Part shown: positions 10,409 to 35,270 of the stretch, piece by piece
Numbering within the stretch: the stretch's first letter is position 1
How the letters are laid out: every line of letters starts with the position of its first letter
IMG/VR virus record: IMGVR_UViG_3300033149_001397
Span: 1-54,166 of that record
DNA length: 54,166 nucleotides
Source: a virus
Reading direction: 5' to 3' (one strand)
Translations under genes and position numbers: made by a program
The notes under the pieces: generated by a model
Seen by the model: the letters and a program-made list of their open reading frames with translations, nothing else
What the model was told of the DNA's origin: nothing
The model's database searches: none

Positions 10409-12523
10409 TCACGCCCCCATCATCAACATTATAGTTGAATAGTCTTTTCTCAACAAGTATTGCGGGTGGTCATTATCCTGTAATCCGGCCAGCGCCCCAT
10501 GGTCCTGCGCTGTGTAGCTCTGTGACAGCGGGTTTGTTCGCCAGTCAACATAGTCGTCACTGTCGTTGGTCGTGCGTATCCGGGCCTTTACGGCGTTGCT
10601 GTACGCGCTGCTCGTCTGGTAGATTATTGATGCTATCGGTTTCATCTCTGGCATAGGCAGCCCGGCCAACACAAGGTTGGATATCTCTATTTCCGCGCCG
10701 TCTCGCGCCTGCGAGATTGTGCTGTATTCGGCCTGCCCCTGGATAGCAATTACGTCTCCTGATGTAAGGTTTGTCGCGAACACGTGACATAAAACAAAAT
10801 TGGCATTCCCTACTTCCGTTTGTGTTCCGCTGTCATTCCACGCCAGACGCCCCCCAAGACCGCCATCCCAAACACTATATCCCGCATTGGTTGTCCATCG
10901 CCAGTCAGAGCCGTCGATATACCATATCTCTAACCCGGTTGTTTTGGCGATTGCGTTCAGGTTGATTATCAGGTCCTCGTCGAAGCACACCCCGGAGCCA
11001 ACGGAGAATTGAGCGGACGCGTTATCGTTTCCATTGCCATCGGCCACCACGTCACCAATTGCCAGCCCGCTCGAATAAGCAAGTCCCACAATGTTGTGCA
11101 GGTATTGATGCGTCTTGCCGTCCATTATTGTGCCGTGCCGTTCGTCGTATATCTGTGACAGGTTGTTTGTTGCGTCCCAGTATACGTAGGCAACAAAAAC
11201 TTTGTTAAGTATTATGTCGTCAACCTGGTCTGTTGTCGGATTTTGGATACTCGCAAGGATGCCGCCGTCATAATAGATTGCCCACAGACCCTCATCACCG
11301 ACCACGCCCGTGCCGATAATGGTATAGTTTGAGCCGACAACATCACTCGTGCTTACGATTGTTAGTGTTCCTGTCTGATATATTTCAAAGTCAGAGGCAA
11401 CCGGGTTGATAGTAAATTTTCTTGTGGCATTGTCGAATGATATGGTTGAGTCGTCTTTGTCAACAAATCCATTCGGTTCATTCTGCGCGGTAAGCTGGCC
11501 TTGTAATGCGTTTATCGCGCCTTCAATCGTCTTTGTCTGTGTGAGAAAGCTTGTGAACGTGTCTGACGGCGCACCCTGCCCGCTGAATCCTGTCTGTAAA
11601 ATATGCGCGGCGAATACAGCGCGTGTATCCATTGTGTGCTCTCGGTCGTTTGGAACATATATGGCTATGAGATTGTCGGCCCCGGTCCCCCAGTCGCCGA
11701 GGCTGTTTGTAACCACCGCCCCGGCTGCCGTAATGGTCGCCCGCTTATGCCCGGCAAATGACGACTGCAATCCTGCCGGATACGTGTATTCCCCCGCGGC
11801 AATATCATAGACCATTACGCATGCGCCGACACCGCTCGGGTCGCTCTGTGGTGTGCGGGATAGTGTAACAGTGCTCGCATCATCTGCCGTCAACGTCTCC
11901 TGCACAAATAGTTGATGTGACGGTCGCCCAAGTATAATCGCATATATGTTTCCGACCCCCGACACCTTGTCCTCAAGCGCAACCGCGAACACGCCATCAT
12001 CTGTCAGATAGTCTGCCTTTGCCGCCACGCCAGCAGTGGTATATGTCCTCAGGTAGTCGCCCTGTGTAATCGCTGCTGCATCCCCGTCTACCTTGATATT
12101 GGCAAGCCCTGATGTGCAGATTAACCCGTCGGCGTCAACTGCAATGGCATCGCTAACCCCGTCCGGACTATCCTGATAAACGACCCCGAGCACGTCTATA
12201 TCCCCGAGTGTGGTTGTGGTTGTGAACGCCGAATCTGAGGACGTGTATTTTACTACGACCTCGCCGTTGTTGCGCGCTGCCCCGGACTTGTTTGTGAGCT
12301 TGGATGTTGTTGTGTTTACCGTTGAGTATCCCTCTGTGTTAGGCGACATTGCATGAGCTTGAAGCATGTCGTTAATATACGACTGCAATGCGGACACTTG
12401 CCGCTGCACAGAGGATATGGCCATGCGGATACTCGGGTCAATATCTGTATGCGCCGCCTTCGCCGCCTGAACCTCAACGGCGCGCGGTATTCGCTTTACG
12501 TTTATGGGGTTCTGCTTGCTCAT
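10409..12523 (-). CDS. Tail fibre protein
   Basis: A 704-residue protein. The N-terminus is helical (SIRMAISSVQRQVSALQSYI), probably a trimeric coiled coil. The rest is beta-rich and low in lysine. Near the C-terminus is the motif DHGALAGLQDNDHPQYLLR (residues about 676-694), a signature of phage tail fibres. It overlaps the upstream giant tail gene by four bases. It is a likely receptor-binding protein. No chaperone or autocleavage motif is visible. Confidence 0.8.
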   Translation of the reverse strand: MSKQNPINVKRIPRAVEVQAAKAAHTDIDPSIRMAISSVQRQVSALQSYINDMLQAHAMSPNTEGYSTVNTTTSKLTNKSGAARNNGEVVVKYTSSDSAFTTTTTLGDIDVLGVVYQDSPDGVSDAIAVDADGLICTSGLANIKVDGDAAAITQGDYLRTYTTAGVAAKADYLTDDGVFAVALEDKVSGVGNIYAIILGRPSHQLFVQETLTADDASTVTLSRTPQSDPSGVGACVMVYDIAAGEYTYPAGLQSSFAGHKRATITAAGAVVTNSLGDWGTGADNLIAIYVPNDREHTMDTRAVFAAHILQTGFSGQGAPSDTFTSFLTQTKTIEGAINALQGQLTAQNEPNGFVDKDDSTISFDNATRKFTINPVASDFEIYQTGTLTIVSTSDVVGSNYTIIGTGVVGDEGLWAIYYDGGILASIQNPTTDQVDDIILNKVFVAYVYWDATNNLSQIYDERHGTIMDGKTHQYLHNIVGLAYSSGLAIGDVVADGNGNDNASAQFSVGSGVCFDEDLIINLNAIAKTTGLEIWYIDGSDWRWTTNAGYSVWDGGLGGRLAWNDSGTQTEVGNANFVLCHVFATNLTSGDVIAIQGQAEYSTISQARDGAEIEISNLVLAGLPMPEMKPIASIIYQTSSAYSNAVKARIRTTNDSDDYVDWRTNPLSQSYTAQDHGALAGLQDNDHPQYLLRKDYSTIMLMMGA

Positions 12524-15500
12524 GGGTAATCAGTCCCAGTAAATGTGTCGCCCTCTGGCGTTATGGTTTTGCCCTCGATGAAAAATGTTACCGTCCTTTC
12601 CATCGCGCCATTAATCACCTTGACGGTCTTGAATATCGGAATGCCGGGCAAATATGGACTCACTATTTGACACTGTGACATAAGCCGCTTCATTTCGTCA
12701 AGTACGTGCTGTGCGTCGTCGTCCACTTTTGCCTGTGTGTATAGCGCCTCGTCAGGCTGACCATTCCGCGCAACGTGTACAAGGTATCCATCGTAGCGTT
12801 TAATCAGTCCCCACTCGTCAAAGTTTTCATCGTTTGGATTGTCGTCTTGAAGCTTTGCTTCCCCGTAAATAAATTCAGACTCGTAGCACTGGACCTCGGA
12901 TATCCCAAATTGAGAATCCGTGTTTCCTTTGTGGTCGTATAGCCCGAGGCTGTGAAGATGGATTTTGATATACTGAAACTTGATGCCCTTGTCGTAATTG
13001 GTACCGGCTTTAAACTCTACGTTCTGTCCCGGTGGTATGTGGAATTGGTTTATAAGCCGTGTCCAGTTAAGCCCGTCGCTTGATATCCACACCGAATAGA
13101 TACAGACAGCCCCACGGTCGCCCTCGTTTGCAGCCTGCGAACCACGTGCCAATATGATGGTCTCCACAAAGTATTCTGCCTCAAGGTCAATTGATATTAA
13201 TGGTAAACCATCTTCACCGGCGGCCTCAAGCGCGGCCTGCACGGTGTATGTCCCTTCGCTCCACCTGCCGTATCCACCTGTTGCCTGTGTTGCGGGATTG
13301 CCGTCAACAATTGTCTGGAAGTCAGTACCCGCGTGCCACGCATAGGCCCACAGGTTTGTAACCGTTTTCGCATAGCATAAATTCGGCAACTCTGATAGCG
13401 GAGCACGGCCGTAGCTGCGGACATACGATGCAAGGTCGTAATGTATTGGGTCCTGTGATGCGCTGCTGATAATTATATCATCGTCGGTTATTACGTAGTC
13501 CTCACTACCAGCTGGTTTTTGTGTGTAGTAATCACAGACAATTTTGCCGTCCGGATCCTCGTGCAGAATATAGTTGGGTGCGACGCGCCTGCAAACCTCG
13601 TTTATACAGTCGTATGCCGTTGGGTGTGTGCGCGGACTGAACTCTATTTCGCGGAGGGTCACGCCTGTTTTCTGTATTGTGTAGTATGTACAATTTCCGG
13701 TGATTGTATACCCGGCCTGGCTTGACGGGAATGTCACCGTGCCGTTTTTCTCATCCCATGTTATTCCCAGTAGGTTCCACTCAATACCGCCCGACCAGTA
13801 ATATACAGGTGTGCCATTGCGGTATATGGCGTTATAGTGGTCTCCAGTTCTAATGTTGTTTTTGCTGAATGAATATGTCAGGTTGTCACTCGTTGTTAAT
13901 GTCTCTCCGAGGATGTTGCGGGTGAAACACGTGTCGTCAAGCCCCGCCCCGCCAAGCTCGTTTGCGTGTTTGAGAATACACCAGATAATATCCTCTGCGT
14001 CGTTTGTCCCCGGCACATAGTATGTAAAGTCTGCGGTTACCGTGCCTGTTATTATGTCGTAAAATGTTACTGTGCCTGCGGCGGTGTTGAGCGTGTATGC
14101 TGTGGCCACAGTGCCGTCAACGTAAACTATGGGCTCCGGGGTGGTCGCCCAGTCGTATATCTGTGTTCCACCGGTTTCATAGTGCCACGTCAACCCGCCA
14201 TCATCTGATGTGAGCGTGCCGCCTGTAACGATCTGTTCATCCGGCCTGTGCGTGTATTCGTAGATTGCGCGTGATAAGAACGTGGCGATTATCCCCTTGG
14301 CAGTCACGTTCATTGTGACTACGCCCTCTGTCGCGTCAATAGGCGTTGACACAACAAATACCTGACACTCCGGATACCACAGCATGCTCCCGCTCGTGTC
14401 GAGTATTCCACGCTCAACAAGTATGCGCGTGCCATCCTCAAGCGTTCCGTTATACGTCCCCGGCGCCCCGCTGTTCTCGTTGAATTTCGTTTCTCTCCAC
14501 GGCAGATAGTCTCGGTCTGTTACGGCGAATGTCAATTGATAGGACGCCTCGCCCTTTGAATGCGTGAATGAGACCGCCTCAAACCCAGCATTGCGCCCCA
14601 TGCCATCAAGACTCTGTGAGACAGAATTGTTGTACAGTATAACATCTGCACTTGTTCCGTCCCACCAGATTTTCGGGCTTCGCACGTGCTCGTTCTCTGT
14701 TGATTCTGGTTGAAACATCTGGATTTCATTTTGTGTGCAGCAGACAGTAATGTCGCCACCAAAAGCTAAATCAAGCGGCGGCGAAGATGTGGCCGGGTCA
14801 AACGATACGCTATCGCCACCCCAGCCGAACTCAAGCGTTTCCCCGTTGTAGTATTGTATTTTGCCGCCAGGTGGTGACGGCGCAGCGCCTTTGCCGGACA
14901 GCAGTATAAACGACTCTCCATTTATGGCCCACAATGCCCGGACATAATCGCTGTGCAAATCAGATGTGGCCTCTGTATACCGCACGATCTCTTTGCCGTC
15001 GTCTCTGATTCTCCACAGTCCGAGCGGATTGCCGCCCTCGTCCTCGACTGCCGCATAGTAGAAGTTCCTGCATTTGACGATATCGGTTATCACTGTGTAT
15101 TCTGTGTCGCCCAAGTCCTTTTCATCGTATACTTTTTTTGCAAGCGACGAGCAATAGGTAAGCTCGCTCTCCGGGATGTTCGTGTCTGCGGTTTGTTTCA
15201 GCGGGTCAGGGTCAAGCACAGAGCGTACAGCTATAAGACCGTTGGGATATGGCCGCACCTTGATTGTAACGTTAACTGTGTCTCCTGTGAATGCGCTTAC
15301 ATGGTTGCCCGGAACATCTATATGGCCAAGCCGAAACCAGATCACATCGTCTTGCGGATCTAGCTGCATAACGCACGTCGAGATTCCTTCCCACCCGACA
15401 CGTGTGCCATATCCCATTTTTGTCATCGCCTTAGATGTTTGCACATATAGTGTTGCCCCATTGTTCCGGTCAAACTCTGCAATGACCTCAAAATAGCCTC

Positions 15501-22799: not shown

Positions 22800-23219
22800 T
22801 TATTTCACCACGTTGTGCATTAGTATTTTTACGATTCGTGGGACATCCTCATCCTGAATCATGATGAACGGTCTTGCCACCATGTTGCGTGTTCCTGTCT
22901 GGTGATATTTGCCGTATGCAACGCTCGGGGCAATCGAAACAGCGTTTCCTGTGACACGCCATCCTATTGAGTTTTTCAGCGTACCGGTATCCATCAACGG
23001 CCTTGATGAGCCGCCCCTGCGCCGTGCAATTGTTGACGCCTTCAACGGCGCCCATCGCGTTGGTTGGCCACCAGCTTTAAAGTTTTTGTCAATACTGCCA
23101 ATCATGTAGCGGCCAATATCATCAAGGTTGCGCGGCATTTGTTTTTTTATCCTGTCGCGCAGCATGTCAATGGACTTGATTGCGGATTTATCGTCAACGC
23201 TGATTGATATCTCAAGCAT
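22800..23219 (-). CDS. Phage virion morphogenesis protein (Mu gpG-like)
   Basis: A 139-residue protein of the phage virion morphogenesis family. Typical elements are the helical N-terminus, WAPLKASTIARRR, LMDTGTLKNSIGWRV, VAYGKYHQTGTRN and a C-terminal RPFIMI. The family includes Mu gpG and phage P2 gpS-like tail-completion proteins. It is packed directly between the DUF1320-like and terminator-like genes. Confidence 0.88.
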   Translation of the reverse strand: MLEISISVDDKSAIKSIDMLRDRIKKQMPRNLDDIGRYMIGSIDKNFKAGGQPTRWAPLKASTIARRRGGSSRPLMDTGTLKNSIGWRVTGNAVSIAPSVAYGKYHQTGTRNMVARPFIMIQDEDVPRIVKILMHNVVK

Positions 23220-23222
23220 TTA

Positions 23223-23678
23223 TTACCAGTCCTCCATGGTACCCTCGTCACCGATTGTTACGCCGTCGGTTTTGCGCGTTATGGTAAACTCCCTGTCCTC
23301 GTCTTTCCTGTTTGACAGCATCAGCGGTTCTGTTGTGGTGTCCGCATCAAGCAACCCCGGGTTGTTTTCTATGATATCGTCTATGCGCTCCAGCGGCCCA
23401 TCACAAAAGCGCACAACCCAATCTGTTTTATTTGGTGCCTTCTGTATTGATAACCGCTTCAATACCTCGCAAACCGCAAGCTCATTTGCAATATCGTCTA
23501 TCTCTCCGGGTACTGTTGTAAGCGGAGTCGTGACAATAGATGATATCCGTCCGTCTATCGCGTTGGACGCCTTTGTCAAAAACCTGTTGATCATATCGGT
23601 CGTGATAAGCGACTCTGTGATCATGTCTCCATAATCCACAAGCATGTCCTGCACGCCCTGTATATTTCCGTATGCCAT
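23223..23678 (-). CDS. DUF1320-like head-tail connector (Mu gp36-like)
   Basis: A 151-residue protein. Its helical opening (GDMITESLITTDMINRFLTK), the DGRISSIV motif and IANELAVCEVLKRL match DUF1320, the Mu gp36 family of head-tail connectors. It is the first structural gene after the sugar cassette. The sugar cassette therefore separates it from the capsid genes it would normally follow. Confidence 0.82.
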   Translation of the reverse strand: MAYGNIQGVQDMLVDYGDMITESLITTDMINRFLTKASNAIDGRISSIVTTPLTTVPGEIDDIANELAVCEVLKRLSIQKAPNKTDWVVRFCDGPLERIDDIIENNPGLLDADTTTEPLMLSNRKDEDREFTITRKTDGVTIGDEGTMEDW

Positions 23679-23737: not shown

Positions 23738-24628
23738 TCACTGCGTGTTTGCCCTGAACCACTCAATCAGGTTTGAAATCCCGCGATCTATCTGGACAAT
23801 CGGCTTCCACCCCGTGTGTTTTTTTATCAGTGTTGTATCTGCTACAGAATGCAGCAGTTCGCCACTGCGCGGCTTTTCGTATACGCGCGGAAGCTTCGCT
23901 CCGTCCACGCAATCAAATATATCTGCGAGCATATTGATTGATATGTTGTTGCCGGTGCCGACCCCAACTGATTCGCCCACAAGACCGTCTGCATATAGCA
24001 CGTCGTGTATTGCGTGTGACAGGTCTGATACGCTGATAAAGTCCCGTGTCTGCTCACCGTCGCCGTATATCTTATAAGCTTTGAGTGTTCCGTTTGCAAT
24101 GCCGCGCGCCCATAGCGCGATTATGCTGCCCTTGTGCATGGACACAGGGCCATACACGTTTGCAAACCGCAGCGGTGTTATCCGCATTCCATAGGATTCG
24201 CAGTATGCCTGGCAGTATGATTCTGTTGCGGCTTTTGATGCGCCGTATGGCGATGATGCCTTGTCGGCACCCGCCGCGCACGACGAGGCAACAACCACGC
24301 GCATGTCCTTATTCTCTCTGCGCACAGCCTCAAGAACGGATATTGTCCCAAGCACATTTTCGTATGCGTTTATCCACGGGTTTTCCTTTGAGTCAACAAC
24401 CGATGTTTGCGCGGCCAGGTGTACTACCGCATCACATCCGTGTATTGCCGTGTCTATTATATCGTTGGTATGTATGTTCCCGGCGACAACAGACGCACCA
24501 AACGGCACGCCTCTCAACCCGCATACGTCGCCGGTGTCCAGCACCACAACCTCATGGCCAATTTCAAGCAGCACCCTGCAGAGATTGCTGCCTATAAACC
24601 CGGCGCCACCCGTTATCAATATTCTCAT
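23738..24628 (-). CDS. NAD-dependent sugar-nucleotide epimerase/dehydratase
   Basis: A 296-residue extended short-chain dehydrogenase. GGAGFIGSN (residues 7-15) is the NAD-binding glycine motif, HLAAQTSV the next conserved segment, and YGASK the catalytic Y-x3-K pair. RFANVYGP and DGEQTRDFISVSDL are typical of UDP-glucose/GlcNAc 4-epimerases and related enzymes. It starts in a four-base overlap with the SqdB-like gene, so the two are coupled. It probably supplies a second nucleotide sugar or isomerises the sulfosugar precursor. The exact substrate cannot be read from the sequence. Confidence 0.88.
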   Translation of the reverse strand: MRILITGGAGFIGSNLCRVLLEIGHEVVVLDTGDVCGLRGVPFGASVVAGNIHTNDIIDTAIHGCDAVVHLAAQTSVVDSKENPWINAYENVLGTISVLEAVRRENKDMRVVVASSCAAGADKASSPYGASKAATESYCQAYCESYGMRITPLRFANVYGPVSMHKGSIIALWARGIANGTLKAYKIYGDGEQTRDFISVSDLSHAIHDVLYADGLVGESVGVGTGNNISINMLADIFDCVDGAKLPRVYEKPRSGELLHSVADTTLIKKHTGWKPIVQIDRGISNLIEWFRANTQ

Positions 24629-25821
24629 TTTTCATCCTCCAATAGTTTTGACCGTCTGTGTTTTCCGTCCCACCGCGTTTGCGGGATTAATACATGCCGA
24701 AGCTTTTCAATCCTGTCTTTATATTGTGATAGATTTTGCAGCATGATTCGTATTTCGCCGCTGATATCCGTTGTTGGCTCGTATCCAATATCAAGCAGAT
24801 GTTTGTGGTCTGGATTATACCTGTGTTTCTCCGCCTCCATGCGCGGGTTTTCGTAGTGCTCAACAGATGCCCTCATTCCGAGGCTGTTCGCCTCTCGACA
24901 AACCATGTGCGCAAGCTCTGTCACGTTATACACGGCCTCGAACTGATTAAACACGCGGTATTCGCCTGCTGCCGGCGGGTTCTCGCACGTTAGTGTCAGG
25001 CACTGCATGGAGTCTTTCAGCGGGAGGAATCCGCGTCGCTGGCCACCAGCTCCATATACTGTCAATGGGTGGCCGATAATCGCAGACGCGCAGTAGCGAT
25101 TAATGGCCGTACCAAAGCATTCGTCAATATCAAACCGCGTCCGCATGTTTGGGTCGTCGCCCATTTCATCAATATGCGCGCCAAACACAACACCCTGCAT
25201 AATGTCTGTTGACCGCAGCCCCCAAATGCGACAAGCAAAACGTGCGTTTTCGCTGTCATGTACTTTCGACAAGTGGTAGAAGCTCCCGGCGTTGCGCGGG
25301 AATGGTGCGTTCTTCCAGACCCGGCCACGGTATTCGATATCAAAAAAACCCTCTGGAATGTCCACTGGCGGCGTGCCGTATTCGCCCATTGTGCCAAGCT
25401 TAACAAGGTGGGCATCCGGGCATACTGTTCGTATCGCCCACAATAGATTCAGCGACCCGAGGACATTGTTGCGCTGTGTCTCCGCTGACTTCCACTGGCC
25501 CATCATGGACCACGGCGCAGACGGTATTTCCGCAAGGTGAACGATTGCATCCGGGAGACAATCCATTAACACACTCTCAAGCTTTATGTATTCAAGCATA
25601 TCGCATTTATATATGTGGTGTCCCGGCCCGTATTTGTCCCTGAACGCCGCTATTCTGTCGTCAATATGGGCAATCTCTATTACGCTGTCTGAGCCCACGC
25701 CATGCACCATATCGCGCCGCAAGCCAATATCACAACCATAAACAGTATGCCCGCGCGCGGCAAGATACTGCGCCAGCGGCCACCCAAGATACCCATCAAT
25801 TCCAGCGATAAAGATTTTCAT
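24625..25821 (-). CDS. sqdB: UDP-sulfoquinovose synthase (SqdB/SQD1-like)
   Basis: A 398-residue member of the SqdB/SQD1/Agl3 family, which makes UDP-sulfoquinovose from UDP-glucose and sulfite with bound NAD. GIDGYLG (7-13) is the NAD motif. HLVKLGTMGEYGTP holds T144, and SFYHLSKVHDS holds Y182 and K186. These positions match the catalytic T/Y/K triad I recall for plant SQD1. IWGLRSTDIMQGVVFG and IGHPLTVYGAGGQRRGFLPL are strongly family-specific. It lies in the glycan cassette, overlapping the epimerase by four bases and 25 bp after the sulfotransferase. I know of no established role for SqdB in phages. Confidence 0.92.
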   Translation of the reverse strand: MKIFIAGIDGYLGWPLAQYLAARGHTVYGCDIGLRRDMVHGVGSDSVIEIAHIDDRIAAFRDKYGPGHHIYKCDMLEYIKLESVLMDCLPDAIVHLAEIPSAPWSMMGQWKSAETQRNNVLGSLNLLWAIRTVCPDAHLVKLGTMGEYGTPPVDIPEGFFDIEYRGRVWKNAPFPRNAGSFYHLSKVHDSENARFACRIWGLRSTDIMQGVVFGAHIDEMGDDPNMRTRFDIDECFGTAINRYCASAIIGHPLTVYGAGGQRRGFLPLKDSMQCLTLTCENPPAAGEYRVFNQFEAVYNVTELAHMVCREANSLGMRASVEHYENPRMEAEKHRYNPDHKHLLDIGYEPTTDISGEIRIMLQNLSQYKDRIEKLRHVLIPQTRWDGKHRRSKLLEDEK

Positions 25822-25846: not shown

Positions 25847-26677
25847 TTACAGCGCTGTTTTGTTCTGCTCAAGCTCAGCAAATATTTCATTCATTTCGTC
25901 GTGGCGAGATATGGAATCATATTCGCTTTTTGGCAACACGTCTTTTGCCTTTTCCATGTATGATATCTTTTTGTAGTATGCGTTTCTTTCAAGCTTGTAT
26001 ATGTCCTCGTCGAATACGTCGGCAATCGCCTTGTCATATACTGATTCATTGGTGTTCAGGTTGGTCATGTTGTTGCCGCCCATCTGGTGATGCTCGTAAT
26101 TCCAGTATTCGACAATGCCCGGCTCATATTCTTCACCGATAATGCCGCACAGGTATTTCAACCACGCCTCATTCTCCGTTGCGAAATCTTTGTATGACAG
26201 GACTATTGTGTTATCAATGTTTGCCGTTGCGAGTAGCGCCTGTTCGTAGAATGTTCCCCACACGCCTATTTTGTCTTCGCGCTTTCGTATGCGCGCAGAT
26301 GCGTAGAACTCCAGCGGCGACTTGTACATAATGAGCGGTATTATATTTGCTCTCCCACCCCACGCCGGCAAAACGTGCTGCCTGAAATACCAAGGTGATT
26401 TGCTCGAATCTACCATGTTGGTAACGTCAAACAACTCTGCGTATCTGTAATACACATTATTGATATCTGTCCCATGCAGAAATTCATCTGTGATGTATTT
26501 GCAGTTTGTCCGACATGATGAGCATCTGCTGTATTCGATATATCCGCGGTCCGGGCTCGTCCACTGTGAAACCTCTCCGATGGAAACACAGTTCTTGAGC
26601 GACCCAAGCTGATATCCGAGCAATGTGCTGCCACAGTAAGACGCCCCAAGAATGAAAACCACGTTCGGCTGCTTCAT
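25847..26677 (-). CDS. PAPS-dependent sulfotransferase
   Basis: A 276-residue protein. GASYCGSTLLG (residues 11-21) is a P-loop-like 5'-phosphosulfate-binding loop at the N-terminus, as in carbohydrate sulfotransferases. IMYKSPLEFYASARIR near residues 117-132 fits the 3'-phosphate-binding strand-helix with its conserved serine. DSSKSPWYFRQ also matches the family. A CxxC-x2-C cysteine group (RCSSCRTNCK) lies around residue 52-61. It would transfer sulfate from PAPS to a sugar or protein hydroxyl. It overlaps the upstream methyltransferase gene by four bases. Confidence 0.85.
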   Translation of the reverse strand: MKQPNVVFILGASYCGSTLLGYQLGSLKNCVSIGEVSQWTSPDRGYIEYSRCSSCRTNCKYITDEFLHGTDINNVYYRYAELFDVTNMVDSSKSPWYFRQHVLPAWGGRANIIPLIMYKSPLEFYASARIRKREDKIGVWGTFYEQALLATANIDNTIVLSYKDFATENEAWLKYLCGIIGEEYEPGIVEYWNYEHHQMGGNNMTNLNTNESVYDKAIADVFDEDIYKLERNAYYKKISYMEKAKDVLPKSEYDSISRHDEMNEIFAELEQNKTAL

Positions 26678-27496: not shown

Positions 27497-28378
27497 CTAA
27501 TCCTCTGTGTCTTGTTTCTGCTGGGCAATATCAACCACCGCACCCATAACATGCTGGTTAGAATATGGAAGGCCAGATATGGAAAATACATCGGACACAA
27601 ACCCGCATACGTCCTTGTTGTATAAAGAATCCCGCACCGCACCAAGGTTGCTAATCAGCCCTTTCAGCCCGTGTAGTTTGCTGTATTTCCGCGAATCTTT
27701 CCCGGCAACAATGACGCTGTTGTCTGTGATTGTCCCTATCAGCAGCCCGCATAGCGCCATTGCATCAACATCGTCCCACCGCCGCTTCAGCCGGCTATAA
27801 AATATCCCGTAGTACGGAATTATCCATGGTATCAATCCATGATTCCTGTGTTTCTCAACCAACCCCTTATATCGTTCGTATGACATTTCCGGCGTGAACG
27901 ATGTTCCATGCAGCCCGAGGCATTGGTATCTTCTATTGTCGAATATACATTTGAATGTGTATCCGTCCTTCTTCATTCTGGTTATCTGGTCAACCTCGCA
28001 CGCGACCCTGTTGATATACGGATAGTTTTTCATGATTTCATGCTTGTAAATTTTAACCCCGAATATCCACCTATCAAGATGAACGTCCCACAGCGGATAT
28101 ACTATGATTGCTTCTTTCGGCCCGCTTTCAATCACGCCGTTATACATGCGGCGAACCGCGTCCGGGCGCAACAGCATATCCTCGTCAACCTGTATATAGT
28201 ATGGTGTCTCGCACCGATTAATCATTTCCTGAAATGCCGCCGCTGACGGCGAGTAGTTTTCTACCGTATCAAGCTGAAACTTACAGTCTTGATTCTTTAG
28301 TCTCGATACGCAATCTGCCGCAGTAATGCCGCCAATAGTAATCACGTATACTGTTAATTCGCTGCTAAGGTCTTTCAT
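27497..28378 (-). CDS. GT2-like glycosyltransferase (free-standing paralogue)
   Basis: A 293-residue protein. The N-terminal strand (LTVYVITIGG), AAFQEMINRC and YYIQVDEDMLL with its D-x-D metal motif are typical of GT-A fold family 2 glycosyltransferases. Along its whole length it is clearly related to the N-terminal half of the next gene upstream (shared PLWDVHLDRW, VKIY, LHGTS, ERYKGLVEKHR), so the pair arose by duplication. The substrate is unknown. Confidence 0.82.
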   Translation of the reverse strand: MKDLSSELTVYVITIGGITAADCVSRLKNQDCKFQLDTVENYSPSAAAFQEMINRCETPYYIQVDEDMLLRPDAVRRMYNGVIESGPKEAIIVYPLWDVHLDRWIFGVKIYKHEIMKNYPYINRVACEVDQITRMKKDGYTFKCIFDNRRYQCLGLHGTSFTPEMSYERYKGLVEKHRNHGLIPWIIPYYGIFYSRLKRRWDDVDAMALCGLLIGTITDNSVIVAGKDSRKYSKLHGLKGLISNLGAVRDSLYNKDVCGFVSDVFSISGLPYSNQHVMGAVVDIAQQKQDTED

Positions 28379-30150
28379 CCTATCACCCTGCCAAAACAGT
28401 GTTTACAGCTCTCCTGTGGCTGTTTGCTTAACACCGAATATCTCAACTCGTTAAACGCCTCTATGTTGTATGGGCTCGCTGGCGTGTCAATTCTGTGAAT
28501 GTCTTGTGGCGGGGCAATACGCCGGCACAGCCCTGTCAGAACCCAGTCGTATTTTGCAGCACACCGCGCGGCAACAAACGGGCTTTTGCAGTTGTGGACC
28601 CTCATGGTTGTATCAATCGGCGTCGGCCACACTGTCACAAGCTCAGCGCCCGGCAGGTTTTTATACCCCTCAATTTCTTCAATCTGTTCTGTGTCTGTGT
28701 CAAAAATCGCCACATCCCGGAAGGCCCTGCTATCCAATGGTGACATTTCGAAATGTGGCAGCGTGTTCATAAATGTTATGAACGCCACCCCGAGCCCGTT
28801 GGCGAACCCAATGAACGCCGGAATCTCTGTATAATTCTGCTTGTTCACCACGCATGATACGCCTGTTTTTATCTGGCCTTTAACCGCCTCGATTCCTGCC
28901 AGCACAACCTCAAACGTCTTTGTGCGCGTGACCATGTTGTGGCCATCTGCATCATAGGCATTCAGGCTCACGGATATGTTATCAAGCCCTGATTCAACAA
29001 GAGAATCCGCATGCTTGTGCAGAAGTATTCCATTTGTGATAAGAGATACAAACTTGCCCTTGCTTTTTAGCAACCTGATAATATCAAACACATTCTCATT
29101 AAGCAGCGGTTCGCCCATTCCGGCAAGGCATGCCCCGGTGATTGATGGGAACTTTCGAAGGAACCGCTCAACGTGCTGGGGCTCCAGGTCTTTAAACCCA
29201 GTCACCTCTTCCGTGTGCTCTTCTCTGCGGCAGAACCAGCAGCGCGAATTACACTTGTCGGTCATAAACAAAACAGCCTCACGCGGAGCCCCGAGTTTTG
29301 ACATGACTCGATTGATATTATCTTCTGTGTATGGCAGCCCGGACAGGTCCATGATATCAGTTATAAACTGTCGCGGCCATTTGTTGTGGAATGAAAAATC
29401 AAGCACGTCAAGGTTGTCAAGTATTCCGCGCACCCCGGGAAGGCTGCCATATTTTGTATAGTCTTTTTCCCCTGTGTTTTCGTTAACGTCTGTTATGTTG
29501 CCTATCACCATTCCGGCGAATGATGCGGCGGCAATGGGATTGAAATTCTGCTCCATGCGATTAAAAAATATCTGATAATACTCGTCAACCCATCTGACAA
29601 GACCATGGCGACGGTGTTTTTCCACGAGGTCTTTGTATCGCTCGTATGCTGTTATCGTTGTATATGATGTGCCGTGCAGGCCCACGCACGATTCGCGGCC
29701 GCCATAGGGAATGTTCTTGAATGTGTATCCGTCCGCTTCCAGCCGCTTGAACTGTCCGACCTCGCATGAGATTGTGTTCTCGTATGGGTAGTTTCGGACA
29801 ATGTTGTGGTCATATATTTTGACGCCCTGCAACCACCTGTCAAGATGGACATCCCACAGCGGGAACACCGCAAACGCCTCTTTGTCGTCGAGGCTAATCG
29901 CCGCATCATACATCGTCTGTACGGCTGTTTCTTCAAGTATCATATCCTCATCAAGCTGAATGAAGTATCTTGTTTTACATCGCGTCAACATCTCCTGGAA
30001 TGCCGCAGACATTGGGCGCTTGTTGACGATAAAGGCAACGTTGAACACGCCATCGCACTCCTGCTTTTTCAGCGCCGACACGCACGCATCAAATGTCTCG
30101 CCACCAATACTGATTACAAACACTGTCAAGTCAAGCCGATTCAATTCCAT
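28375..30150 (-). CDS. GT2 glycosyltransferase fused to a radical-SAM enzyme
   Basis: A 591-residue fusion. Residues 1-285 are a GT2-like domain paralogous to the neighbouring gene (QLDEDMIL, residues 65-72, carries D-x-D). Residues about 290-510 are a radical-SAM core with C300-x3-C304-x2-C307 (KCNSRCWFC) and GMGEP, the SAM-binding motif. Residues about 520-591 contain further cysteines (HNCKSPFVAARCAA, GLCRR, SCKHC), fitting an auxiliary iron-sulfur SPASM-like region. Such enzymes make hard bonds on sugars or peptides. The fusion suggests modification and sugar transfer are linked. Confidence 0.85.
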   Translation of the reverse strand: MELNRLDLTVFVISIGGETFDACVSALKKQECDGVFNVAFIVNKRPMSAAFQEMLTRCKTRYFIQLDEDMILEETAVQTMYDAAISLDDKEAFAVFPLWDVHLDRWLQGVKIYDHNIVRNYPYENTISCEVGQFKRLEADGYTFKNIPYGGRESCVGLHGTSYTTITAYERYKDLVEKHRRHGLVRWVDEYYQIFFNRMEQNFNPIAAASFAGMVIGNITDVNENTGEKDYTKYGSLPGVRGILDNLDVLDFSFHNKWPRQFITDIMDLSGLPYTEDNINRVMSKLGAPREAVLFMTDKCNSRCWFCRREEHTEEVTGFKDLEPQHVERFLRKFPSITGACLAGMGEPLLNENVFDIIRLLKSKGKFVSLITNGILLHKHADSLVESGLDNISVSLNAYDADGHNMVTRTKTFEVVLAGIEAVKGQIKTGVSCVVNKQNYTEIPAFIGFANGLGVAFITFMNTLPHFEMSPLDSRAFRDVAIFDTDTEQIEEIEGYKNLPGAELVTVWPTPIDTTMRVHNCKSPFVAARCAAKYDWVLTGLCRRIAPPQDIHRIDTPASPYNIEAFNELRYSVLSKQPQESCKHCFGRVIG

Positions 30151-31834
30151 TTTCTATTGCCCTCTCTGTATAATGGATTACTCTGTCCCACGATAGTATT
30201 TTGTTAACCACATGGTTGTTCAACATGAATATCCTGTCATAATTTTGCAGCGAAAAATAGCGAATCGCCGCTATAAATTGCCCGACATCCGGCCTAACAA
30301 TAACTCCGTTTATATCGCCCACAAAAAGATTCATTGCATAGCCTACATCCGTTGATACAACCGGCGTTCCGCACGCAATGGCCTCGCATGTGGTTGACGC
30401 TATGGCCTCGGAATGGCTCGCATTAAGATACACATCCACGCTGTTGTAGAATTTGCACATTCCGTCATACGGTATTTCGTCGATGAGGTGTCCGGCCATG
30501 CGGATTTCCTCTACCACGTCCGGGTTAACATCCTTTGCGGCGAACCTGAAATTATATTCATCTTTCAATGCCCTGAACACAGGCAGGATGATTTCATAAA
30601 ACCGTTTGTGGTCGCGCGGGTTGCCGTGGCTTGCATTGCCGGCCCACCCTATTGTCAGCCGCTCATTCCGCTTTGTTCGCACGTTGAAAAACATGTTTGT
30701 ATCAACGCCCTGCGGAGTAAAATATACTTTGTGGCCGATGTGCGCTGACCGTGCAATTTTGTACAGCCTGTCTGAAATCGCGTGTATGTGTTTGCAACAT
30801 TTAAGTTTCTCATTGAACACACCAATGAACCTGTCATCATCATACCCGTGGTGGGACTCAACAGATACTGCTACGCGCTCTGGTGGCACCTGCGCCATGA
30901 GCCGCCGTAATATCTCTGGATACAGCCCAATAATCGACCGGCAGACAATGAAGTCATACCGAGAAAAATTAATATCGTCAATTTTTATGTAGCCTCTAAT
31001 TGCCTTGTTCCTGTACTCGCGGATAAAGCACGTCTTGTCAACCCTGTATTTGTGTGATAGCTTTTCTGCAATTACATCAACGAGCCGCGCAACAGCCCAG
31101 TCCGGCGTATCTGCGATAAACAGAATGCGCTTCTTTTCCGGCTCCGGAATCTTGTTTGCGAACCCTGCAATTCCGCTAAGTCTGTCAGGCCACTTGAATT
31201 GTAATATTGAGTGGCTTTTTATGTACTGGTCGTCATGGTCAAATGTTTTTTGGGTGTGCATTGTCCTGTGTTCGGCGTGCTGAATCCGGTGATCCTTCAG
31301 CCACCCTATTGAATATCCGGCCTCTTTAGCCCGCCAGTAAAAATCAACGTCCGAGCAGTATGCTGGTGAAAACACCTGGTCTAACCCGCCGAGATATTCC
31401 CACACGTCGCGCCTTACCAGCAGACCGCCACCACCCAAATATACGCGGTCGCTGTCTTTCCATTCGTGTAGATCTTTCCCTATTCCGTTTTCGTTGACCT
31501 CGTTGAGCACACACCCAACAATGTCATGGTTGTTTTCTGTTGCCGCCCGGAACAGCCGCTCAATGGCACCCGGGCTCACAAACTGGTCGTCGTCAAGAAA
31601 TAGAAACCAGCCGTATTTTGCGAACTTGGCAATATGATTGCGGCCACCCACACACCCAAGGTTCTTTTCGTGCTCAATAAAGCGTACCCACGGGAATCGC
31701 TCTTTGCGTATTTTCGACTCCCCGCCATTGTTCATCACAATGACCTCGCCGAACTTCTCACAGCTAATTGCTTTTAAGCAACTCACAATTGTTCCGCTGT
31801 TATGCGTTAAAATCAAAACAGATATGTCAAGCAT
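30131..31834 (-). CDS. Bifunctional GT2-GT4 glycosyltransferase
   Basis: A 567-residue protein. Residues 1-220 are a GT2 domain (SVLILTHNSG, WFLFLDDDQF with the D-x-D metal site, CSDVDFYWRAKEAGY). Residues about 230-560 resemble a GT-B fold family 4 domain: GWAGNASHG, then SEAIASTTCEAIACGTPVVS, which has the conserved E-x7-E spacing. Two glycosyltransferase domains in one chain usually add two sugars in succession. It overlaps both neighbours, so it belongs to the coupled cassette. Confidence 0.87.
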   Translation of the reverse strand: MLDISVLILTHNSGTIVSCLKAISCEKFGEVIVMNNGGESKIRKERFPWVRFIEHEKNLGCVGGRNHIAKFAKYGWFLFLDDDQFVSPGAIERLFRAATENNHDIVGCVLNEVNENGIGKDLHEWKDSDRVYLGGGGLLVRRDVWEYLGGLDQVFSPAYCSDVDFYWRAKEAGYSIGWLKDHRIQHAEHRTMHTQKTFDHDDQYIKSHSILQFKWPDRLSGIAGFANKIPEPEKKRILFIADTPDWAVARLVDVIAEKLSHKYRVDKTCFIREYRNKAIRGYIKIDDINFSRYDFIVCRSIIGLYPEILRRLMAQVPPERVAVSVESHHGYDDDRFIGVFNEKLKCCKHIHAISDRLYKIARSAHIGHKVYFTPQGVDTNMFFNVRTKRNERLTIGWAGNASHGNPRDHKRFYEIILPVFRALKDEYNFRFAAKDVNPDVVEEIRMAGHLIDEIPYDGMCKFYNSVDVYLNASHSEAIASTTCEAIACGTPVVSTDVGYAMNLFVGDINGVIVRPDVGQFIAAIRYFSLQNYDRIFMLNNHVVNKILSWDRVIHYTERAIENGIESA

Positions 31835-32960
31835 TTTTTATCATCCTTGCCGCCTTTGTTGCTATCTCAGCGGGCTTTATTGAGGACATACAAACATTGT
31901 CTTTTGTGCGGTTGCAATATCTAATCCTTCCACGCAAGCGCTGCCAGTCCCAGCACGGAACACATGGGGCCGCGCCGATTTTGTGGATGTAATCAACGTG
32001 GTCACCGTAATGGTCAAACCGCCATTCAAACGGCATTGACGACAACAGCACCAGCGTGGGTATTCCAAGCGCGGCAGATACATGGGCCATGCCGGTGTCC
32101 GGAGATATCACAAGGTCAGACATCCAGCATACAGCCGCTGCATCCATTGCGGTTTCTGTTCGCGTGCCGAGGTCAAGCACCCCTGGAATATCGCCAAACA
32201 ATGCGGCATCAACGTCCAGCACAACAACGGTGTGGTCGGGTAGTGCCTTGCGCAGTTCAATAATTACATCGCGTGATTTCCACGGCTCATACGATCTATT
32301 CCACGCCACCGCCTGTAGCACGTATGTAATGATAGGCCCGGTTACGTTGCGCAGCAGGTCTGACGCCGCAGCATAGTTCTCTGCTGTTAATCTCGGCTCA
32401 ACCACGTTCTCATATTCAGGCAGGTCGATTCCAATCATTTTTGCAAACGATTCAACCCGCCTGCCACGGTTGCGCAGTATGCTATAAAATTCAAGGCACC
32501 GCATGAAATTTATAATCAGCTTGTATTCTGTCCCATCAAGATTTATGTCGTGTATGGAAACCGGCTCGTCAATGAAATCATGGCCGGAAACCATATCAAT
32601 AAATTTCGGCAGCGTGGCATAGGTGATAGTCGCGTGCGGATACCTGTGTTTTAGCTGCTTGACTGTTGGCAGAGAAAGAAGGATATCGCCGAGGCCCATG
32701 TCGCGCATTATCAGTATTTTGTCGCCCGGCAATATCTCATCATCAAAAACAGAAATAGACTCCAATGTTGTATTGGAGCCTATATAATACGTGTCGTCGT
32801 TAATAACCTTATACTCAGGATATAACCCCGTCATTATTTCGCGTGAGATATCGGATTTATCGTCAACCTGTCGCGGTATCCCGCGCACCATTGTTGTTCC
32901 TGTTTTGCCACCCGGCGGGAAACCCAACATTTCCCGGCCGAGATAAACGACCTGTTTCAC
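31827..32960 (-). CDS. GT9-like (heptosyltransferase-family) glycosyltransferase
   Basis: A 377-residue protein. IMRDMGLGDILLSLPTVKQL (residues about 83-102) is the N-terminal motif of family 9 transferases, and SPDTGMAHVSAALGIPTLVL (about 288-307) is the C-terminal nucleotide-sugar motif. The first 60 residues are an extra domain. It begins with GTG after AAGGAGGA and is the first gene of the cassette, 23 bp after the secreted-protein gene. Confidence 0.85.
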   Translation of the reverse strand: MKQVVYLGREMLGFPPGGKTGTTMVRGIPRQVDDKSDISREIMTGLYPEYKVINDDTYYIGSNTTLESISVFDDEILPGDKILIMRDMGLGDILLSLPTVKQLKHRYPHATITYATLPKFIDMVSGHDFIDEPVSIHDINLDGTEYKLIINFMRCLEFYSILRNRGRRVESFAKMIGIDLPEYENVVEPRLTAENYAAASDLLRNVTGPIITYVLQAVAWNRSYEPWKSRDVIIELRKALPDHTVVVLDVDAALFGDIPGVLDLGTRTETAMDAAAVCWMSDLVISPDTGMAHVSAALGIPTLVLLSSMPFEWRFDHYGDHVDYIHKIGAAPCVPCWDWQRLRGRIRYCNRTKDNVCMSSIKPAEIATKAARMIKNA

Positions 32961-34331: not shown

Positions 34332-35270
34332 TTACGAAATGACGTTACGGATCAGGTATGCGGCGTATTCGCACACAACCTTGACGTCGTTTTTCTCGTC
34401 TGCGCGCACGTACTTGCCGCGCGGGTCAATGGTGTCCCACTTGTCCACCCGGCGCATCTGAGTGAAGAAGGTCTGACCAAATGTCATCATCTTTTTCCGC
34501 GGCGTTCCAGGAGATTTGTAGAACAATAGCACGTGCTTGCCCCACACGTCAGAGCCGCTGTAGGTAGCTCCGTGGTTGGCAGAATCGTAAATGCCGCCCG
34601 GAATGAGCACCTTCATGTTGAACAGTGTGGCGGGAAGATCGCCGTTGATCAACAGGTTGTCATTGGTGAACTTGCGGAGCGCGCGGATGTTGCTGTCGCG
34701 CTTCATCACCTTTGCAACAGCCGCCGGAATCACAATGTGGTTGGGCTCGAACCCGATGGCCGCGCGAATGGTTTCTTTCGCGGCATCAAGCTCTTCTTCG
34801 ATATCGCCGGTGTAGCTGGCGTTATCCCACTGTGCTGTTCCCGTGCGTGTGGCAGTGTGTCCGCTGGTTGCGAACGTGGCTGCGGCCGTAGCAAGATCGG
34901 CAGCCCGCTTCTCATGTGCAAGCATCAGATTCTCTGTGATGTATCCAGTCGCGTCAACCTCCAGGTCAATGGGTTTGTCCGCGGCGTCGATATCATCCTG
35001 GGAAATTTTGTGCTTCAACGCATGTCGGTCACACGTGTAGGTCGGAGTGCTTTCGATTTCGAACGGGTCAACCTCGTTAGCCTCCGCGTTGCTGGCCTGC
35101 ACGGTGTCATAAATGCGCTTGTCCTGCTTGCCGTAGACAGGATATTTGTCGCTCTCTTTGTCTACCTTGACAAACGGGAAAACCTCAGAGGCGACGAATA
35201 ACCCCTGCCCGTATTTAATGCTGTAGTTCGTCAGAAATCTGTCAACTTTGATGTCTCCATACTTGGACAT
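34332..35270 (-). CDS. Major capsid protein
   Basis: A 312-residue protein with an HK97-fold major capsid look: SIKYGQGLFVASEVFPFVKV near the start, DRHALKHKISQDDIDAADKP, FEPNHIVIPAAVAKVMKRD and a strong P-domain pattern. It follows the DUF2190-like gene and the protease/scaffold, and AGGAGGTGAGCG precedes the ATG. The terminator just after it fits the highest expression in the operon. Confidence 0.88.
   Translation of the reverse strand: MSKYGDIKVDRFLTNYSIKYGQGLFVASEVFPFVKVDKESDKYPVYGKQDKRIYDTVQASNAEANEVDPFEIESTPTYTCDRHALKHKISQDDIDAADKPIDLEVDATGYITENLMLAHEKRAADLATAAATFATSGHTATRTGTAQWDNASYTGDIEEELDAAKETIRAAIGFEPNHIVIPAAVAKVMKRDSNIRALRKFTNDNLLINGDLPATLFNMKVLIPGGIYDSANHGATYSGSDVWGKHVLLFYKSPGTPRKKMMTFGQTFFTQMRRVDKWDTIDPRGKYVRADEKNDVKVVCEYAAYLIRNVIS

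What the first reader, a model, noticed from the sequence alone, without database searches (positions are those of the whole stretch)
24625..25821. Phage-encoded UDP-sulfoquinovose synthase
The protein matches SqdB/SQD1/Agl3 along its length, including the family-specific segments HLVKLGTMGEYGTP, GSFYHLSKVHDS and IGHPLTVYG. The catalytic T/Y/K residues are at positions 144, 182 and 186. The enzyme makes UDP-sulfoquinovose for sulfolipids or, in Sulfolobus, for S-layer glycans. A phage copy in a glycosyltransferase cassette suggests a sulfosugar on phage or host surface.
Basis: partly seen in the sequence, partly recalled or inferred. Interest (0 to 1): 0.85.

Follow-up and report, generated by a model that had tools for sequence, protein, structure and literature searches.

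The report
Phage sulfoquinovose synthase-like gene, variant branch
An uncultured phage carries, inside a sugar-modifying gene cluster among its late structural genes, an enzyme gene of the kind that plants and microbes use to put sulfur onto glucose; the same kind of gene is spread through well over 100 viral contigs, and in two other phages it sits beside a gene that makes the sulfite it would need.

Summary
Window 24625-25821 (minus strand) encodes an intact 398-aa protein. Its only close solved homologue is SQD1 (43% identity; model Z 56 against SQD1, Z 34 against the best GalE), with T144, Y182 and K186 in place. The record is a phage. The gene lies in a ~10.5-kb glycan cassette between the major head protein and head-completion genes, overlaps an epimerase gene by 4 bases, and follows a sulfotransferase-like gene. 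A related phage keeps the sqdB-epimerase pair.

Refinement: this is not the textbook form. The Arg essential in Sulfolobus Agl3 (R101A is inactive) is Pro100. Pro stands there in 133 of 163 relatives aligned; SQD1, Sulfolobales and Thermoplasmata carry Arg. So the product cannot be read off homology alone. The best evidence that the Pro branch uses sulfite is context: two unrelated phages have an APS/PAPS reductase (sulfite producer) immediately upstream of a Pro-type sqdB, and two Bathyarchaeota loci pair it with APS kinase.

Verdict: probable UDP-sulfoquinovose synthase (about 0.7) feeding a late-expressed sulfosugar decoration; target unknown. One Mu-like virus with a putative UDP-SQ synthase was reported in 2020, so 'phage-encoded' is not new. 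The breadth, Pro branch, cysH-sqdB pairs and a virus-only clade beside replication genes appear new.

The parts
24625..25821 (-). sqdB-like gene, 398 aa: UDP-sulfoquinovose synthase-like SDR, Pro100 branch
23738..24628 (-). NDP-sugar epimerase-like SDR, start overlaps the sqdB stop (ATGA); the pair is conserved in phage L090 and 8 cellular loci
25847..26677 (-). sulfotransferase-like protein (N-terminal GASYCGSTLL loop, VDSSK motif; Pfam Sulfotransfer_3 below cut-off); relative 3 genes upstream of sqdB in phage L154
26674..27645 (-). methyltransferase (Methyltransf_23); the TTG start is uncertain
27497..28378 (-). glycosyltransferase-like protein without Pfam hit, similar to the N-terminal part of the next ORF
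28375..30150 (-). glycosyltransferase-like N-terminus fused to a radical SAM domain
30131..31834 (-). two-domain glycosyltransferase (family 2 plus group 1)
31827..32960 (-). heptosyltransferase-like (GT9) protein
34332..35270 (-). major head protein, cassette border on the 5' side of the operon
23223..23678 (-). Mu Gp36-like head-completion gene, cassette border on the 3' side of the operon

Best explanation
The gene makes a UDP-sulfoquinovose synthase-like enzyme. Probable mechanism, as in SQD1/Agl3 (step order from the literature): NAD+ oxidises C4 of UDP-glucose, water is lost across C5-C6, sulfite adds at C6 and the 4-keto group is reduced, giving UDP-sulfoquinovose. The overlapping epimerase may then change the ring stereochemistry, and cassette glycosyltransferases, perhaps with the neighbouring sulfotransferase and methyltransferase, build a sulfur-bearing glycan. 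Because the cassette is embedded in the late structural operon it is probably expressed late and decorates the virion or the host surface. The phage shows no sulfite-making gene of its own here, so it would draw on host sulfite. Shown: homology, fold, conserved catalytic residues, gene position, conservation of the pair. Inferred: sulfite use by the Pro100 branch, product, target.
For: Profile and PDB matches specific to the SqdB family. AlphaFold2 model (pLDDT 93) fits SQD1 at Z 56, rmsd 1.5 over 385 residues, against Z 34 for the best UDP-glucose 4-epimerase. All 55 near-invariant family positions are kept, including H95, M145, E147, Y148, S180, Y182, H183, K186; 79 of 87 positions invariant in Arg-type enzymes are kept. 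A related phage (L090) has the sqdB-epimerase pair at the same site, 68% identical, pN 0.22 against saturated pS 0.75. Two phages carry an APS/PAPS reductase above the NCBIfam equivalog cut-off directly upstream of a Pro100-type sqdB: L124 (reading frames abut within a few bases) and L147 (about 230 bases upstream with a DUF2061 ORF between, and terminase and portal on either side). PF01507 hits 2 of 49 sqdB-bearing viral records, and both hits lie right next to sqdB. Two Bathyarchaeota loci have Pro-type sqdB, epimerase, glycosyltransferase and APS kinase in a row.
Against: Agl3 R101A is inactive (PMC4388408), and this protein has Pro at the aligned position. No Pro-type enzyme found here is known to have been assayed. 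No sulfite-producing gene was found in this window. NCBIfam cut-off not reached. Cellular Pro-type genes of Anaerolineae sit beside his/asd/pheA genes and not in obvious sulfoglycan loci.
Confidence: 0.7

Rival explanations
1. The Pro100 branch is a neofunctionalised SqdB paralogue: it dehydrates UDP-glucose to the 5,6-ene (known for Agl3 without sulfite) and either stops there or adds a nucleophile other than sulfite.
For: Pro replaces an Arg that is essential in Agl3. One Anaerolineaceae genome holds both an Arg-type and a Pro-type copy, as expected if they do different jobs. Agl3 makes UDP-glucose-5,6-ene without sulfite (PMC4388408, PMC8987622).
Against: cysH directly upstream of Pro-type sqdB in two unrelated phages and APS kinase near it in two Bathyarchaeota loci. 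The other catalytic residues assayed in Agl3 are kept, with Ser for Thr at 185. Pro and Arg types are interleaved on the tree, four changes, not one clean split.
Confidence: 0.2
2. An ordinary UDP-sugar epimerase or 4,6-dehydratase misread as SqdB.
For: Generic Pfam epimerase domain hit; PHROGs names only nucleotide-sugar epimerase.
Against: SqdB profile at E 1e-150 against 1e-8 for the next model; SQD1 Z 56 against 34 for epimerases; TMG instead of the dehydratase TDE/TDK motif.
Confidence: 0.04
3. It makes UDP-sulfoquinovose, but for host sulfolipid or host envelope remodelling during infection and not for a phage-encoded glycan.
For: SQD1 and cyanobacterial SqdB serve sulfolipid synthesis (general knowledge; PMC4388408).
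Against: The gene sits among glycosyltransferases inside the structural operon, with the same epimerase partner in L090.
Confidence: 0.06

Closest known systems
SQD1 (Arabidopsis) and SqdB, UDP-sulfoquinovose synthase
   Same: Full-length homology (43% identity), fold (Z 56, rmsd 1.5), GxxGxxG, TMG, YxxxK
   Different: Pro100 replaces Arg; glycan cassette in a phage and not a sulfolipid locus
Agl3 of Sulfolobus acidocaldarius and other Sulfolobales
   Same: H95, T144, M145, E147, Y148, S180, Y182 and K186 all present; Agl3 serves surface glycans
   Different: Agl3 has the essential Arg; this protein has Pro
Mu-like virus with a putative UDP-sulfoquinovose synthase, Cariaco Basin (Mara et al. 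2020, PMC7785012)
   Same: Virus with Mu-like head genes carrying a SqdB homologue
   Different: One contig, discussed as an auxiliary metabolic gene for host glycosylation; no residue analysis or sulfite-supply link in the passages read
Phage L090 (IMGVR_UViG_3300033153_003713)
   Same: Same head gene order, sqdB-epimerase pair at the same place
   Different: Sulfotransferase-like and radical SAM genes not seen; other cassette genes

Membership tests
UDP-sulfoquinovose synthase (SqdB/SQD1/Agl3) | Full-length match to the family profile far above other SDRs | tested here: met
   NF041015 1.7e-150 over 1-383/384, next model 1.7e-8
UDP-sulfoquinovose synthase (SqdB/SQD1/Agl3) | Score over the NCBIfam equivalog cut-off (575 bits) | tested here: not met
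   501 bits; Synechococcus elongatus is also under the cut-off in the control, so the cut-off is strict
UDP-sulfoquinovose synthase (SqdB/SQD1/Agl3) | [ST]MG plus YxxxK active-site signature and GxxGxxG | tested here: met
   G7-x2-G10-x2-G13, T144-M145-G146, Y182, K186
UDP-sulfoquinovose synthase (SqdB/SQD1/Agl3) | Arg aligned with Agl3 Arg101 (R101A inactive) | tested here: not met
   Pro100; Pro in 133 of 163 relatives, Arg in 28
UDP-sulfoquinovose synthase (SqdB/SQD1/Agl3) | Other residues assayed in Agl3: H95, M145, E147, Y148, S180 | tested here: met
   all present and near-invariant; T185 is Ser here, as in SQD1
UDP-sulfoquinovose synthase (SqdB/SQD1/Agl3) | SQD1 fold, closer than to other SDRs | tested here: met
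   Z 56 against 34
UDP-sulfoquinovose synthase (SqdB/SQD1/Agl3) | Genetic link to a sulfite source | tested here: inconclusive
   none in this window; cysH adjacent in L124 and L147, APS kinase in L050/L051
UDP-sulfoquinovose synthase (SqdB/SQD1/Agl3) | UDP-glucose + sulfite to UDP-sulfoquinovose in vitro | not testable with these tools
   needs an enzyme assay
Phage-borne glycan cassette | Sugar genes within a phage operon with head and tail genes on both sides | tested here: met

The most novel reading that the evidence does not exclude
Phages widely make their own sulfosugar: a Pro100 branch of SqdB, including a virus-only clade kept beside dCMP deaminase, ParB-methylase and DNA polymerase genes, makes UDP-sulfoquinovose or a related sulfonated sugar nucleotide, in some phages with a dedicated sulfite-making reductase, and uses it on virions or even on phage DNA.
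Probability: 0.3. Interest if true: 0.85.

Novelty: new variant of a known kind. Interest (0 to 1): 0.62.

Why it matters
Sulfoquinovose is known from photosynthetic membranes and archaeal surface glycans. If phages make it, they use a sulfonate sugar as a coat or mask and tap host sulfite. The Pro100 branch, most of the relatives found here, would also change what is thought essential in this enzyme, since the curated model's cut-off is reached only by archaeal forms in the sets tested here. A single enzyme assay decides the main question.

Tried and rejected
Generic epimerase reading: rejected on profile and fold. Artefact or misassembled cellular piece: disfavoured, same strand and site as in phage L090. 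A sulfite-maker in this window: cysH tblastn found none. Host assignment: sqdB groups with Anaerolineaceae/Chloroflexota (local support 94, not starred), while the head protein finds only distant relatives (24-32% identity) in RcapMu-, RDJL- and Mu-like phages and in 4 of 297 genomes of the phylum of a Desulfobacterales MAG, so the host is left open. No named phage record holds a relative of the enzyme. Sulfotransferase neighbour: no significant PDB hit and no close viral relatives, so only motif-level. Reverse search from phage cysH gave three distinct phages of that subfamily, two with adjacent sqdB and one 4.3-kb contig (L191) without. The SQD1 structure paper is not held, so the exact contact made by its Arg101 was not checked; from memory the equivalent position in GalE (Lys84) lies near the NAD phosphates, which would make the loss less telling for sulfite.

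Full report
Observation. The ORF is real and intact: 24625-25821 minus, 398 aa. It matches NCBIfam UDP-sulfoquinovose synthase along its whole length at 1.7e-150 and SQD1 in the PDB at about 4e-105, with nothing else better than 1e-7. The motifs and T144/Y182/K186 are as described. The window is a virus record whose head, packaging and tail genes are recognised by PHROGs and whose head protein relatives include RcapMu- and RDJL-type phages.

Anatomy. The gene lies in a cassette of glycosyltransferases, a radical SAM fusion, a methyltransferase and a sulfotransferase-like gene, between the major head protein (34332-35270) and Mu Gp36-like and tail-completion genes (23223-23678, 22800-23219). 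The epimerase start codon overlaps the sqdB stop. Phage L090 has the same head gene, a partly different set of cassette genes and the same sqdB-epimerase pair directly before its Gp36-like gene. Synonymous sites are saturated (pS 0.75) while pN is 0.22: purifying selection.

Family. I aligned 163 relatives from viral contigs, genomes and a plasmid. All 55 near-invariant positions are kept in the window protein. The one clear departure is position 100. Zolghadr et al. (PMC4388408) found Agl3 R101A inactive; the primer sequence AEQ[R]SAP identifies the site. It is Pro in 133 sequences including the window's, Arg in 28 including SQD1, Sulfolobales, Thermoplasmata and one phage (L150), and Ala or Lys in one each. 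A second phage with Arg (L246) came later. With that column removed from the tree, the residue at this site needs four changes. The sampling started from this protein and patterns drawn from it, so the Pro share is not a census.

Fold. The AlphaFold2 model (38-sequence alignment, pLDDT 93.1) matches SQD1 at Z 56, rmsd 1.5, 385 residues; the best UDP-glucose 4-epimerase reaches Z 34.

Does the Pro branch use sulfite? Among 49 sqdB-bearing viral records, PAPS reductase domains occur in two, and in both the gene is right upstream of a Pro-type sqdB. In L124 the reductase reading frame ends where the sqdB homology begins, inside a run of glycosyltransferases downstream of a head protein; in L147 the order is terminase, epimerase, small ORF, reductase, DUF2061, sqdB, portal. 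Both reductases pass the NCBIfam equivalog cut-off for phosphoadenylyl-sulfate reductase and keep the Cys pairs and ECGIH end. Two Bathyarchaeota loci place Pro-type sqdB, epimerase, glycosyltransferase and APS kinase in a row. Eight cellular loci, in Chloroflexota, Thermodesulfobacteriota, Omnitrophota, Pseudomonadota and Bathyarchaeota among others, have the same epimerase at +1, as in this phage. This is context and not biochemistry, but it is specific to the substrate in question.

Breadth. Viral scans returned 112 and 128 contigs with relatives, overlapping sets. After thinning, 31 viral sequences form a starred virus-only clade. Its neighbours are conserved and unlike this cassette: dCMP deaminase (-1), ParB-DNA methylase (+2), DNA polymerase, primase, Sak4-like annealing protein, exonuclease. 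A GT2 gene is present in 36 of the 49 records tested.

Known or new. The library holds one prior report of a virus with a putative UDP-sulfoquinovose synthase (PMC7785012). The searches cover open-licence papers only. What I did not find reported: the Pro100 branch, the phage cysH-sqdB pairs, the virus-only clade.

Conclusion. The protein belongs by sequence and fold to the SqdB/SQD1/Agl3 clade and probably works like a UDP-sulfoquinovose synthase. Because one residue essential in Agl3 is missing, I do not file it as a proven member of that enzyme function.

Noticed in passing
L098, L108, L116, L136 and others (31 thinned rows): Virus-only clade of SqdB-like enzymes in a conserved replication module: dCMP deaminase at -1, 81-aa ORF at +1, ParB-DNA methylase at +2, DNA polymerase after it. 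Why a sugar-nucleotide enzyme is kept there is unexplained.
   Followed up: partly
L124:9357-11110; L147:9063-11188: Phage-borne APS/PAPS reductase directly upstream of sqdB; L147 also has a DUF2061 ORF between them and terminase and portal on either side.
   Followed up: yes
L191:536-1207: Third phage-type cysH of the same subfamily next to structural-looking genes, without sqdB in its 4.3 kb.
   Followed up: no
window 28375-30150: Glycosyltransferase-like N-terminus fused to a radical SAM domain in a phage cassette; a free copy of the N-terminal part is next door (27497-28378).
   Followed up: no
L050, L051: Bathyarchaeota operon: Pro-type sqdB, epimerase, family 2 glycosyltransferase, APS kinase.
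   Followed up: partly
L001:1379-3334 and 11848-14187: Large repetitive proteins (repeats like GCGSQTAGLSFGG..TTEEYNGTSW) flank the sugar cassette of a 241-kb viral contig.
   Followed up: no
L011, L014, L188: In Anaerolineae the Pro-type sqdB sits in a conserved block with his, asd and pheA genes, not in a glycan locus.
   Followed up: no
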